Assembly (NCBI RefSeq): GCF_018320785.1 | Contig: NC_054885.1 | Location: 8,196,921 to 8,260,920, forward strand | DNA length: 64,000 nt | Direction: 5' to 3' | Source: Cheilinus undulatus | Taxonomy: Eukaryota; Chordata; Actinopteri; Labriformes; Labridae | In this document: piece after piece, positions 58,213 through 62,776 of the stretch | How positions within the stretch are numbered: position 1 is the first letter of the stretch | Layout: each line of letters begins with the position of its first letter | The notes under the pieces: generated by a model | What the model was told of the DNA's origin: nothing | Databases searched by the model: none | What the model saw: only the letters and a program-made list of their open reading frames with translations | Program-made: the position numbers and the translations under genes

Positions 58213-58280
58213 GGTCTCAGATACTGTGGTTGATTTGACATCACACTCTCAGAGTGGTGCATGATTTCTCCTCACAGACC
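58213..58280 (-). ncRNA. Candidate box C/D snoRNA, copy 1
   Basis: Minus strand, 68 nt: terminal stem GGTC/GACC, C box GTGAGGA (one mismatch to RTGATGA), D' box CTGA (29-32), C' box TGTGATG, D box CTGA (61-64). Guide before D' is CATGCACCACT, complementary (10 pairs plus a wobble) to the conserved 18S segment GTGGTGCATG. The fifth base upstream of D' faces the G equivalent to human 18S G1328. It lies about 1.2 kb beyond the kpnb1 stop codon, so it needs a 3' UTR intron or its own transcript. Confidence 0.55.
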
Positions 58281-58324
58281 AAACACAAGCTGGGTTTTAA
58301 GTATTGTAACAGAGAAAAGTGCTG

Positions 58325-59430
58325 CAAAATTAATTGAATTTTAGTCACAATCAGAATTTTGGCTTTATTACTATCAAAGAAACACTGACAGCATTGATTT
58401 GCATGTTAAATTTTATAATATGCATTTGCATTTGTTTTGATTCATAAAGCGCAGATGTGTCAAACTCATATCAAGTCCAGGGCCAGATTTGCTCCAATGA
58501 GACGTCCTGAGGGCCAGACTATTTAGGCCAGGGGTGTGAAAGTAAATTGTGGATTCTGAATTTAGGCCTAACCTAAGAGCCTAACAAGGTCAAAATTTAA
58601 ACAAACAGTCAACCTCATTTTCACCATTAGTAAAATATGAAAAAAAATATAAATAACACTGATATTAAATCATTCTGAGATTAAAAAAAGTCAAAACGAT
58701 AAGTTTAAAAGCTCAAACTCTGAGATTAAGTCAAACTTATTAGTTCAAAAGGTCAAAACACGAAATTTAAAGGCACAATAATGTTTTTATAAAGGCAAAT
58801 TCATGAGAGAGAAAGTCAAAATCACAAGTTTAAAAGGTAAAAATATGACTAAGAATTTTAAATTGGGAATCTTGAAGGTCAAAACATGAAAATAGTCAAT
58901 CATAAGTTTAAGTCAGAATTGTGAGATGCTAAATTGAAAATATGAAGTGACAACATTACAACAACTTTTTAACTAATTACTTTCACTCTTTACTTTTTCA
59001 GATTTTTATAATTTCACAAGGATATTTTAAATCATCAAGGTTAAGTTTTCATGTTTATACTTGGAAGAAATTTGCAGACCTTATACTGGTGGGCCAGTTA
59101 TAACAGAAAGATCGTATGATCTTGCGGGTCGGATACAACTGTACCACGGGCCGGATTTGGCCCCTGGGCCTTGAGTTTGACACCTCTGATACAGCGTATT
59201 TGATATGAACTGTTGTATAGAAGGGAATGATCCTTCTTAAAGTAATTCACATTTTAAATAATGAAATATAGAAAAATAAGGAAGTAGGATTTCTGCAAAC
59301 TATTATAAAACATTAGGTATTTTGAAACACATTTGAGGGAAAAAAATAAATAAATAAATAAAAAATTGCACCCACTGCCATTAGAGCATTTCAGTAGGCA
59401 ATATAATGACTGAATCAAAATTTCAATAGA
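58325..59430. mobile_element. Old gggctgggcaat-type element split by a hAT insertion
   Basis: 58325-58451 and 59189-59430 join into sequence resembling 34552-34870: ttgattcataaag...tatttgatatgaactgttgt against ttgattcactttgcatatta, gatatgaactgttg, and gaatgatcctt-type sequence thereafter. The split coincides with the boundaries of the hAT element at 58452-59188. Confidence 0.6.
58452..59188. mobile_element. Non-autonomous hAT element, same family as 14466-15352
   Basis: Left terminus cagatgtgtcaaactca, right terminus ttgagtttgacacctctg, flanked by ataaagcg (58444-58451) and atacagcg (59189-59196), one mismatch in 8. Near the right end it has ccgggccggatttggccc-like sequence as in 15313-15330. 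The interior has degenerate aaggtcaaaatatga units. Confidence 0.88.
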
Positions 59431-59484
59431 TTATTATGGATAAATATGATCAGTGATGTTCGTCAGTGTGTGATCAGTGTGTGA

Positions 59485-62400
59485 TCAGTGTGTCTTATCA
59501 TACCAGGCCTGGCTCTTGAGCTTGCGGAGCTCCTTGGTGGCCCATGTAGCCAGTGTCTTGGTCTTGGTGGTTTTGGAGCGTCGACCCTCCGTCAGCAGGT
59601 CGTTGATGAGCGGACGAACCTCCACCAGTTTAATGACATCTTTACCGAACGCTGTGCACAAGTCGCTGAAAGCAGATGCAGAAAACACTTCAACACAAGA
59701 GGTCACAAATATCAGACAGAAGCACAGATTTAAAATAACAGACTGCTGAATATTTTCACCTGAAAGTCCTCGTTAGTACAGTGAAAATCACCTCTACCTA
59801 TCACATGGAGGGATTTATGCTCTTCAGTTTTATTAAAGAACTAATCTTAGTGGAGTGCAGTCTGTGACAGAAGTGTTTGAGAATGGGGGTCTGTCTTGAC
59901 CAAAGGCGGTGACACCAGCCCTGCACCAGACCAATAAATCTCTCCTGCTTTCCGACTCATGATCACAACTCTGAAGCTGAAATTTTAACAAATTTTTTGC
60001 AGTATTGAGGCTAAAACACTCCAAGAGGTCAGAAGGGTGAAGACATGACTGTCATATCAGCTGCCTCTGATGTTAAGTTTCGTTTTCCTGTTGCTTCACA
60101 GTTGCTGATTTGCAAACACAGCTCTCAGTGAAGATGATAAGGATGTGAGATGGTTAACTCCTCAGCCAGCCCTGCTCTGGGAAAGAATGCTGCGTCTGTG
60201 CACAGCCTGAAAAACATGCACAGTAGCAAAACCAATGAATAGGTAAATCATTGATGATCAAATTTGTTGGTGTTCATTCTCTTGCAGAAACACAAGAACT
60301 TAAATTTAATTCTGATAAGGAAAATTTACAATAATTGAGATAGGTTTACTTCAGGCTTTAAATTTTTCTGATGCACTACGTAAACTTTCGAGTTTGGAGG
60401 ATTAATTCCACTTTGTTTCAGTTTAAGTTAGTTAGTTATCAAGAAAACAAGGCTTACTAACAATGTAATGTTTATAGTAGCTGGACAAGAATTTTAAGAC
60501 TTATTTTGTCCACCTATCGGAAAAAAAAAATGCAGGTAAATATTTGATAAAGTTGGAGATGGAAATGGTGGCCCTCGTTTATTAATGTTCTTAACGTTTG
60601 ATTCTCAGAAGATTATCTGATAGTTCCAGTTTCAGTTCTGATGTTGGTCTCAGATCTTGTGGTTGGTTTTGCATCACACCATCAGAGTGGTGCATGATTT
60701 CTCCTCATAGACCAAACAAACCAAACCTGCTAATGTACCTCCGATTCACCCTTACCCGATGAGTCCTGCAGCATTTGCTACGACTCCGTCAGAGTGATCC
60801 TCATCCTCGGCTATGTGGTGGATGAAGGAGAGGATGAACTCCACCCGAGGCTGAACCAACATCACATCAGCTGCAGAGGGGAGAGGAAGGAGAGGAGTTA
60901 CAACAAGAAGATAACCGGGTAAGAGAGATGAGCAAAGAGGTAGGAAGGGAGGGGAAGGAGAAGGAAAAGGTAATTTAGCTGGAAAGAAACAGTTGAGAAA
61001 AAAAGGAGAGGAGAGAGTGAGAGAGATAAGCAAGAACAAAATGAGGGAGAAAAGAAGCAAGAGATGATGGAGTAAAAGGAGTAAGGGGGAAAAGACGAAG
61101 ATGGCAAGCAGAAGGAGGGAAGAAAAAGGGGATAGAACTGTAGATGGAAGATGAAGGAATGAGGAGTGACAGGAAGAAGGAAGGAAGAGGGAATTAAGAC
61201 AAGAGAGAAGGAAAGGAAAGGAAAAGAAAAGAAAAGAAAAGAGAGAAGGGGAGCAAAAAGGGAAGACTGAACAAAGTTGGGGGAAAGGGAGGACCAATGT
61301 CGCAAGACAGAGTTAGGAAAAGGCAGGAAGAAAGGAGGTAAAGAGACTATTAAGAAAAGATAAAGAAGCGTAGGAAAAGAGATGAAGGGTGTGAAAAAGG
61401 AAGGGTGGATGGGGCAAACAATAAAAAAAAGGAGGTCAGAAAAAGAAGAACAAAAGAAGACAGAAAGAAGAGAATGGAAATGAGGAAAGAAGGGTACCCA
61501 ACAAAGTAAATTAGAGACAAGTGAGGGGATAAAGGTCAGAAAGAAAGCGAGAAAAGATGAAGCAAGCCAAGCACAACAGAATAAGGGGCAAAATAAGGAC
61601 AGAGAAGTAATAGATGGTGAAGAGCAAAAAAGAGAGTTAGGTGAGAAAGAGAGGGATATTAAAAAAAGAAAAAAACTAAACATTCAAGAAGAAGTACTTT
61701 CTTTAGTATTACAATGATTATTGATGCATTTCATTTTGTGCATTTAGTTCATTTATTCAAGTATCTGGGTTCATTTGTTGGGTCTCGCAAAACCAGGAAG
61801 CTTTGTGAGTCGCAGGGCTGCAGCTGCAGCTTTCTGGGTGAAAAAGACCCTCATTTCTCTGCGATGTCGTAAAATCCTCCTGAAGGACTTGTTACAGGAG
61901 GAGGAACCGACGTCGCCTCACACTGCATAGACATTTCTAGGGTGTCCAGAGTACTCACGGTGCACGTTCTCCTGGTCCCCCTTCAGGCCCTGGATGATCC
62001 CAGTATACGCCTCCAGACAGCCTTCCCTCAACTCGTTCAGGTAGTCCACCATGTCATAGTCCGTCTGCGAAAACACACATAAGGGTTTGAAAAATGACAA
62101 AAATTCTTGATATAAAGCAGATTAAAAATGAAACTAAATTGATAAAGTAGGACTTGTGCATACAGCAGTAGAGCATCTGTATGGGAATAAAAACAAACAC
62201 ACTATATCTGCCAATAGATTACTATTACCAAAATCAGAGGGGAAGAAGAGACCTTACCTTGTCGACCTGTGCCTGTGACGCCTGCTGCAGGGTGTCCAAA
62301 ACAATGTCTAGGTATTTCTTAAACTCTCCTCCGATGGCCAGAGCGATGTCCCCAAATGCAGAGAGGATCTGAGGCTTCACTGACCGATGGACATTCTCAT

Positions 62401-62776
62401 TCTGAAAACAGAGTCACATTAGCAGAGCTCCATTAGCAAAGTCAGATGATTTAGTACAGCTTGTCATTGCTGTCCAGACAGAATAAGAGCAGAATCATGC
62501 AGGTAGAGATGAAATCCAACATATCAGGTCTCAGATTGATGTGGTTTGTTTTACATCACTGTCAGCGTGGTGCATGTTTATCATCATTGACCGGACAGAC
62601 CAGAGAGGGGGGAGAGAGAGAGGCTGGATGAAGGAGGGTGAGACGGGACGGTCCATTGTCTAACTCACCCCAAGGTTCTCTAGCAGCAGCTGCATGATCT
62701 CGTCACAGTAAGGCAGGATGTTTGACATCAGAGCTCTGCACAGGTCACACACCAGACCGACAGCTGCAAGACACAC
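59485..62776 (-). CDS. kpnb1: Importin subunit beta-1 (karyopherin beta 1), last five coding exons, 5' part beyond window
   Basis: Importin beta-1 carries importin-alpha/NLS cargo through nuclear pores and is released by RanGTP; it is a superhelix of HEAT repeats. Exons in transcript order: 62776-62669, 62401-62258, 62064-61959, 60870-60756, 59665-59485, all GT-AG and in phase, encoding the last 217 residues. Product blocks match human almost without gaps: [95 protein letters not shown], and [18 protein letters not shown]. These are the final HEAT repeats, which in the family contact importin-alpha's IBB. The C-terminus continues WYDKTH past the alanine where human ends. Introns 62402-62668 and 59666-60755 each carry a snoRNA-like sequence. 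No damage seen. Confidence 0.95.
60646..60713 (-). ncRNA. Candidate box C/D snoRNA, copy 2 (kpnb1 last intron)
   Basis: Minus strand, 68 nt: stem GGTC/GACC, C box ATGAGGA (same single mismatch as copy 1), D' CTGA, C' TGTGATG, D CTGA. Same D' guide CATGCACCACT. It lies in the intron 59666-60755, starting 42 nt after the 5' splice site. Most of the sequence is shared with copy 1; flanks show only weak similarity. Confidence 0.62.
60880..61680 (+). repeat. Long polypurine tract in kpnb1 intron
   Basis: About 800 bp of almost uninterrupted A/G on the plus strand (ggaaaggaaaggaaaagaaa at 61211-61230 is typical). In the kpnb1 transcript it is polypyrimidine. The long Phe/Ser/Leu frames opposite are artefacts. 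Confidence 0.85.
62527..62592 (-). ncRNA. Candidate box C/D snoRNA, copy 3 (kpnb1 intron)
   Basis: Minus strand, 66 nt: stem GGTC/GACC, perfect C box ATGATGA (6-12), D' CTGA (28-31), C' GTGATGT, D CTGA (59-62). Guide before D' is CATGCACCACG; ten bases pair with the 18S segment GTGGTGCATG and place the human G1328 equivalent at the D'+5 position. It lies in the 267-bp intron 62402-62668, its 3' end 122 nt before the splice acceptor. This is the best-formed of the three copies. Confidence 0.72.

What the first reader, a model, noticed from the sequence alone, without database searches (positions are those of the whole stretch)
58213..62592. Three-member box C/D snoRNA family in and behind kpnb1, with an 18S Gm1328-type guide at the D' box
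Seen: three 66-68 nt sequences (62527-62592, 60646-60713, 58213-58280), all on the kpnb1 sense strand, keep GGTC/GACC terminal stems, C, D', C' and D boxes and the guide CATGCACCAC directly upstream of D', while linkers differ. Known: GTGGTGCATG is a conserved 18S rRNA segment, and SNORD32A directs 18S Gm1328 with a similar guide, but from its D box and from RPL13A. Inferred: these are functional guides for the same G, in a different host gene and box position. Preserved boxes with drifting linkers look like selection on RNA. I know of no described kpnb1-hosted snoRNA with this guide, but cannot search.
Basis: partly seen in the sequence, partly recalled or inferred. Interest (0 to 1): 0.86.

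Follow-up and report, generated by a model that had tools for sequence, protein, structure and literature searches.

The report
Repeated ribosome-methylation guide RNAs in kpnb1
A fish importin gene carries several copies of a small RNA gene that very probably tells the cell where to methylate its ribosomal RNA; the same kind of RNA in the same gene was already listed in chicken in 2009, so this is a good new fish example rather than a new system.

Summary
Three 66-68 nt box C/D snoRNA genes lie on the minus (kpnb1 sense) strand at 62527-62592, 60646-60713 and 58213-58280, each with a GGTC/GACC stem, C, D', C' and D boxes and the guide CATGCACCAC one base before D'. They alone passed my box scan of the window; 100 shuffled windows gave none. 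A fourth copy lies 14 kb beyond the window, in kpnb1 intron 4; two more sit in introns of a FUBP-family and a ccar1-like gene. No dispersed repeat was seen. The window guides pair 10-12 bp with 18S rRNA; the 5th nucleotide before D' points at the G that, by recall, is human G1328. rpl13a holds two SNORD33-type genes in another register; no SNORD32A-type guide was found by exact pattern. The functional reading is well supported by sequence. The novelty reading is not: chicken GGgCD25 (PMC2653536, Table 1) is a two-copy D'-guided snoRNA for the U32A/B site, hosted by KPNB1 introns 4 and 7. Expression and methylation were not testable. New member of a known kind; the modest novelty is at least six copies in three hosts and a shared intron number.

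The parts
62527..62592 (-). box C/D snoRNA copy 1 (66 nt): stem GGTC/GACC, C ATGATGA 62581-62587, guide CATGCACCAC 62567-62576, D' CTGA 62562-62565, C' GTGATGT 62553-62559, D CTGA 62531-62534; in the kpnb1 intron between residues about 701 and 702
60646..60713 (-). box C/D snoRNA copy 2 (68 nt): C box ATGAGGA (one change), guide CATGCACCAC 60687-60696; in the last intron between coding exons of kpnb1, about 40 nt after the 5' splice site
58213..58280 (-). box C/D snoRNA copy 3 (68 nt): C box GTGAGGA, guide CATGCACCAC 58254-58263; 3' of the last kpnb1 coding exon, possibly in a terminal intron
59504..59665 (-). last kpnb1 coding exon seen; ends ..LKSQA then TG|GTATGA, a candidate donor inside the expected stop codon
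58109..58165 (-). candidate polypyrimidine tract and 3' splice site roughly 95-105 nt after copy 3 (AG before 58116, a second AG 7 nt on); another candidate acceptor at 57540
61773..61915 (-). SNORA79 (H/ACA) in the kpnb1 intron before that of copy 2, showing that this gene's introns host another snoRNA type
   Evidence: 72.4 bits against a gathering score of 55

Best explanation
The three sequences, with a fourth in kpnb1 intron 4 outside the window, are intron-encoded box C/D snoRNA genes made by duplication within kpnb1. After splicing, the RNA is trimmed to the GGTC/GACC stem, binds the 15.5K/NOP56/NOP58/fibrillarin proteins at C/D and C'/D', pairs 10-12 nt of 18S rRNA with the guide next to D', and places fibrillarin on the nucleotide opposite the 5th base before D', the G equivalent to human 18S G1328 (numbering recalled). 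They are the fish counterpart of chicken GGgCD25. Shown: anatomy, at least six copies in this genome, sense-strand placement, pairing with a eukaryotic 18S segment, and published prior art. Inferred: expression, snoRNP assembly, methylation, orthology with the chicken genes, and that the genome is a teleost's (no call names it).
For: C/D elements and guide are kept while linkers drift; 0 of 100 shuffled windows give such a structure. A model built from the three finds the fourth copy at 88.4 bits, after the kpnb1 exon for residues from 95 on, counted as intron 4, the same number as one of the two chicken introns. The 18S segment GGGTGGTGGTGCATGGCCG was read in a contig scored as SSU_rRNA_eukarya, 534.5 bits. 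Duplex: 10 pairs for copy 1, 12 for copies 2, 3 and intron 4; the 5th nucleotide before D' is C in all six copies, opposite the same G. The plant family RF00300 matches below its cut-off with CAUGCACCACUCUGA aligned base for base in copies 2 and 3 and with one change in copy 1. In Arabidopsis SnoR21 is the guide listed for methylated 18S G1275, and the chicken table puts snR40, snR21 and U32A/B on one row.
Against: No expression or methylation data. No copy reaches an Rfam gathering score. C boxes of copies 2 and 3, of the intron-4 copy and of the ccar1 copy depart from RTGATGA at one base. Copy 2 and the intron-4 copy lie near the 5' splice site, about 1 kb and 3.3 kb from the next coding acceptor, not near the branch point. 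Copy 3 follows an AATAAA at 58369. Linker against box difference for copies 2 and 3 alone is not significant (p 0.057). In the Arabidopsis mutant that loses SnoR21.1 the site was only slightly reduced, which the authors put down to a second variant. The chicken genes are computational predictions as far as I saw, and their sequences were not compared. No second fish genome was available.
Confidence: 0.9

Rival explanations
1. A narrower version of the best explanation rather than its opposite: only some copies work. Those with a canonical C box near the 3' splice site (copy 1, the FUBP copy) make snoRNA, while copies 2, 3 and intron 4 are decaying or weakly processed duplicates.
For: One-base C-box changes in copies 2, 3 and intron 4; copy 2 and intron 4 sit far from the next coding acceptor; copy 3 may lie outside the transcript.
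Against: Guide, D', D and stem are unchanged in all four kpnb1 copies, which neutral decay would not preserve; box-against-linker p 0.0004 and 0.0002 for the two pairs with copy 1, though 0.057 for copies 2 and 3.
Confidence: 0.3
2. The sequences belong to a dispersed repeat or retroposed snoRNA family without function.
For: At least six copies in three genes.
Against: Of 19 sites CATGCACCACNCTGA in 1.17 Gb (3 for the reversed control pattern), 6 score over 50 bits, three of them by construction; the other 13 score 18.5 or less and show no C box by the pattern used. DNA search with copy 2: 3 matches, all in kpnb1, but it missed copy 1, so more diverged copies could escape. Flanks are shared only over about 35 nt between copies 2 and 3.
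Confidence: 0.03
3. The RNA is made but its main job is elsewhere, for example regulating kpnb1 splicing or another target through the conserved AACCACA upstream of D.
For: AACCACA is kept in all four kpnb1 copies.
Against: Three of the five bases next to D, which a D guide would need, differ between the window copies, and the element is changed in the FUBP and ccar1 copies; the D' guide is identical in all six.
Confidence: 0.05

Closest known systems
Chicken GGgCD25 (PMC2653536, Table 1)
   Same: KPNB1 host, two intronic copies including intron 4, guide at box D', 12-nt pairing, 18S G1286, assigned to the site of human U32A/B
   Different: Chicken has 2 copies (introns 4, 7); this genome has 4 found in kpnb1 (intron 4 and three at the 3' end) plus 2 in other genes. 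Chicken letters were not available to compare
SNORD32A / RF00133 (SNORD33/SNORD32 family)
   Same: Same 18S G by the +5 rule (human sequence and site recalled)
   Different: SNORD32A guides from box D and sits in RPL13A (recalled); Rfam score about 21 against 44 at copies 1 and 3, copy 2 not listed for this family at E 10
Plant snoZ221/snoR21b (RF00300)
   Same: CAUGCACCACUCUGA guide and D'; SnoR21 is listed for Arabidopsis 18S G1275
   Different: Different linkers and host setting; scores 28.0-30.8 in the window, 24.7 intron 4, 41.7 FUBP, 28.1 ccar1, against a gathering score of 44
Yeast snR40
   Same: Listed on the same row as U32A/B and snR21 in the chicken table
   Different: Not compared by sequence

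Membership tests
Box C/D methylation-guide snoRNA | C and D boxes joined by a terminal stem | tested here: met
   all three window copies; C box one base off in two
Box C/D methylation-guide snoRNA | D' and C' boxes | tested here: met
   CTGA ... GTGATG in all three; last C' base varies
Box C/D methylation-guide snoRNA | guide of 10 or more bp to rRNA next to D or D' | tested here: met
   10 and 12 pairs with the 18S segment; the 18S is from a contig of the viral collection, not this genome
Box C/D methylation-guide snoRNA | intronic, on the host sense strand | tested here: met
   copies 1 and 2; copy 3 inconclusive
Box C/D methylation-guide snoRNA | stable small RNA bound by fibrillarin that directs methylation | not testable with these tools
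   no RNA data
Chicken GGgCD25 family | KPNB1 host and D' guide to the U32A/B 18S site | tested here: met
   equivalence of the fish site to that of U32A/B rests on the recalled human guide
Chicken GGgCD25 family | a copy in KPNB1 intron 4 | tested here: met
   fourth copy C21:8274969-8275036; intron counted from coding exons found by tblastn with a recalled human protein (first exon hit weak, E 0.05), so a 5' UTR exon would shift the number
Chicken GGgCD25 family | sequence homology to the chicken genes | not tested
SNORD32A/SNORD33 (RF00133) | Rfam gathering score | tested here: not met
   21.6 and 20.8 bits against 44; the 21.6 hit starts outside copy 3 and covers only part of it
SNORD32A/SNORD33 (RF00133) | guide at box D, RPL13A host | tested here: not met
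   guide at D', host kpnb1; rpl13a of this genome holds two other RF00133 genes
snoZ221/snoR21b (RF00300) | Rfam gathering score | tested here: not met
   28.0, 28.1, 30.8 bits against 44; intron-4 copy 24.7; FUBP copy 41.7, ccar1 copy 28.1

The most novel reading that the evidence does not exclude
In non-mammalian vertebrates the 18S G1328-equivalent guide is a KPNB1-born D' family. In this fish it has grown to at least six genes in three hosts (four in kpnb1, one each in a FUBP-family gene and a ccar1-like gene), so one rRNA site is served by a redundant, multi-promoter set, while rpl13a carries only SNORD33-register genes. Mammalian SNORD32A, at box D in RPL13A, would then be a later replacement made by duplicating SNORD33 and shifting its guide, after which the KPNB1 copies were lost.
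Probability: 0.45. Interest if true: 0.45.

Novelty: new member of a known kind. Interest (0 to 1): 0.33.

Why it matters
It extends a KPNB1-hosted guide from chicken to a fish, with a copy in an intron numbered 4 in both, so the arrangement may be as old as bony vertebrates. The human case (SNORD32A in RPL13A, box D; recalled) would then be a host and box switch for one conserved methylation. Rfam's models miss all six copies found at their cut-offs, so routine annotation may miss them. Several copies in three hosts for one site give a natural test of guide redundancy and dosage.

Tried and rejected
Dispersed repeat: not supported (limits given under the rival). SNORD32A-type D-box guide elsewhere: pattern CATGCACCGCNCTGA gave 5 sites; 0 of 5 had an exact RTGATGA 30-80 nt upstream, and model R1, itself D'-type, gave at best 17.2 bits. 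A diverged SNORD32A could be missed; the RF00133 genome search scored only 59 of 182680 first-look candidates, with 2 matches over the cut-off and 1 under it (0 of 14 control genomes over the cut-off, 11 ringing below it). External stems beyond GGTC/GACC: shuffles as good as the real flanks were 231, 99 and 15 of 500 for copies 1, 2, 3 and 144, 14 and 471 of 500 for intron 4, FUBP and ccar1, so only 2 of 6 stand out and I do not rest on it. Free minimum-energy folds of the window copies were uninformative. Viral-contig scan for an exact snoRNA pattern: 0 matches. Paper searches for KPNB1 with snoRNA: 755 papers with 3 of 4 terms, 20 listed; 1 paper; 1 paper; the one to the point is PMC2653536. 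PMC7668251 (zebrafish RiboMeth-seq) is not held. PMC6954239 (passages) has no kpnb1 in its main text. That I saw no fish report rests in an open-licence library, mostly listings. RF00300 did not complete as a genome search.
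Full report
What is there. Three sequences on the minus strand, 62527-62592, 60646-60713 and 58213-58280, have the full anatomy of a box C/D snoRNA: GGTC/GACC stem, C, D', C' and D, with CATGCACCAC ending one base before D'. A mechanical scan of both strands, with patterns chosen after seeing them, returned these 3 loci only, and none in 100 dinucleotide-shuffled windows. 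The exact guide 10-mer occurs only in these three places in the window; shuffles give 0.14 on average, 3 at most. Pairwise, stem, boxes and guide differ at 2 of 40 positions each time; linkers, gaps counted, differ at 12 of 29, 13 of 29 and 6 of 28 (p 0.0004, 0.0002 and 0.057).

Where it is. Minus-strand exons, translated and joined by hand, match importin beta-1 residues 666-876. Copy 1 lies in the intron between residues about 701 and 702, copy 2 in the last intron between coding exons, about 40 nt after its 5' splice site. SNORA79 lies in the intron before that of copy 2 (72.4 bits). Copy 3 lies 3' of the last coding exon. That exon reads KSQA then TGG, where the solved importin beta-1 sequence ends KNQA, and the TGG holds a GT donor (CTG|GTATGA, score 6.0 in a recalled matrix). 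Splicing to 57540, or to an AG 7 nt past the first AG at 58116, would complete the stop as TG|A; the first AG itself would instead add 12 residues (CCEKALLSILTR). Acceptors at 58870 and 58674 would also give the stop and would leave copy 3 in an exon; an AATAAA at 58369 precedes copy 3. Copy 3 may thus be intronic, unproven.

The wider family. The window's genome (1.17 Gb, 46 contigs; species not named, teleost by inference) was searched. CATGCACCACNCTGA occurs 19 times, the reversed control pattern 3 times. A covariance model of the three copies scores six of the 19 above 50 bits: the three window copies, by construction; a fourth at C21:8274969-8275036 (88.4 bits); one at C13:15371902 (55.5); one at C6:37767812 (52.4). 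The other 13 give 18.5 bits or less and show no C box by the pattern used. The fourth lies about 115 nt after the fourth coding exon found. The C13 copy is in an intron of a FUBP-family gene, about 105 nt before an exon. The C6 copy is in an intron of a gene with LAIKA and SAP domains, which I call ccar1-like from recall, about 120 nt before an exon. A genome-wide DNA search with copy 2 returned 3 matches, all in kpnb1; it missed copy 1 and the two outside genes, so its reach is short and six is a lower bound.

Target. A contig scored as SSU_rRNA_eukarya reads GGGTGGTGGTGCATGGCCG; 18S of this genome was not read. Copies 2, 3 and intron 4 pair over 12 positions (10 Watson-Crick, 2 G-U), copy 1 over 10; the base 5 upstream of D' is C, opposite the second G of GTGGTGCATG's GG pair, in all six. 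By recall this is the G that human SNORD32A addresses from its D box (Gm1328). The rpl13a gene of this genome holds two RF00133 genes, 77.1 and 64 bits. Their guide is CATGCACTACCAT before D, whose fifth base is A, which puts the target two nucleotides 5' of that G; by recall this is the SNORD33 site, Um1326. No SNORD32A-type guide was found: 5 sites of CATGCACCGCNCTGA, 0 with C/D anatomy. Diverged forms could escape this.

Prior art. PMC2653536, of which I saw Table 1 rows, footnotes and passages, lists chicken GGgCD25: 2 isoforms, 18S-G-1286, 12 nt (5'), snR40, snR21, U32A/B, KPNB1 (intron 4,7), with 5' defined as box D'. It also says that human U32A/B is a double guide whose functions are held by separate snoRNAs in chicken. 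In PMC8053127 (passages) SnoR21 is listed for Arabidopsis 18S G1275; in a mutant without SnoR21.1 the site (there printed 18S_C1275) was only slightly reduced, put down to a second variant. The host, the D' position and the site are therefore already on record for a vertebrate. PMC8393311 (passages) reports 35 methylated 18S sites in zebrafish; I saw no site list.

Mechanism and certainty. The standard route is most likely: splicing, trimming to the stem, binding of 15.5K, NOP56, NOP58 and fibrillarin, D'-guided methylation of the G (general knowledge of box C/D snoRNPs). Anatomy, pairing, a minimum copy number and the host are shown; all events in RNA are inferred. Against it stand one-base C-box changes in three kpnb1 copies and the ccar1 copy, the position of copy 2 and the intron-4 copy near 5' splice sites, and sub-threshold Rfam scores for all six copies.

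Verdict. Real, probably functional, and a fish member of a vertebrate snoRNA family already listed in chicken. What is added is a copy in the same-numbered intron 4, expansion at the 3' end of kpnb1, two further hosts, and rpl13a without a SNORD32A-type guide by the searches made, which together suggest that the mammalian arrangement is derived.

Noticed in passing
window 61773-61915 (-): SNORA79 H/ACA snoRNA (72.4 bits, above its gathering score) in a kpnb1 intron; chicken lists rows with ACA65, by recall the other name of SNORA79, in EIF3S10 and antisense in HTR2C.
   Followed up: partly
L022:1484-1555 (+), C13:15371885-15371956: C/D snoRNA with a canonical C box and the same D' guide in an intron of a FUBP-family gene; 41.7 bits to plant RF00300, just under its cut-off of 44.
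   Followed up: yes
L015:1463-1532 (-), C6:37767774-37767843: Same D' guide in an intron of a ccar1-like gene, with GGTC/GGCC stem and C box AGGATGA.
   Followed up: yes
L033:1501-1584 and 1242-1319 (-): rpl13a carries two SNORD33-type genes, both with guide CATGCACTACCAT before D; no SNORD32A-type copy seen there.
   Followed up: partly
window 58453-59186: Stretch with ends like a common fish mobile element (TCAAACTCAT ... GAGTTTGACA) between the last kpnb1 coding exon and copy 3; naming is from recall.
   Followed up: no
window 59503-59506 (-): A possible splice donor lies inside the expected kpnb1 stop codon (TG|A), implying a terminal intron.
   Followed up: partly
L001:3632-4543: A contig of the viral collection ends in eukaryotic 18S rRNA (534.5 bits), so it is at least partly cellular.
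   Followed up: no
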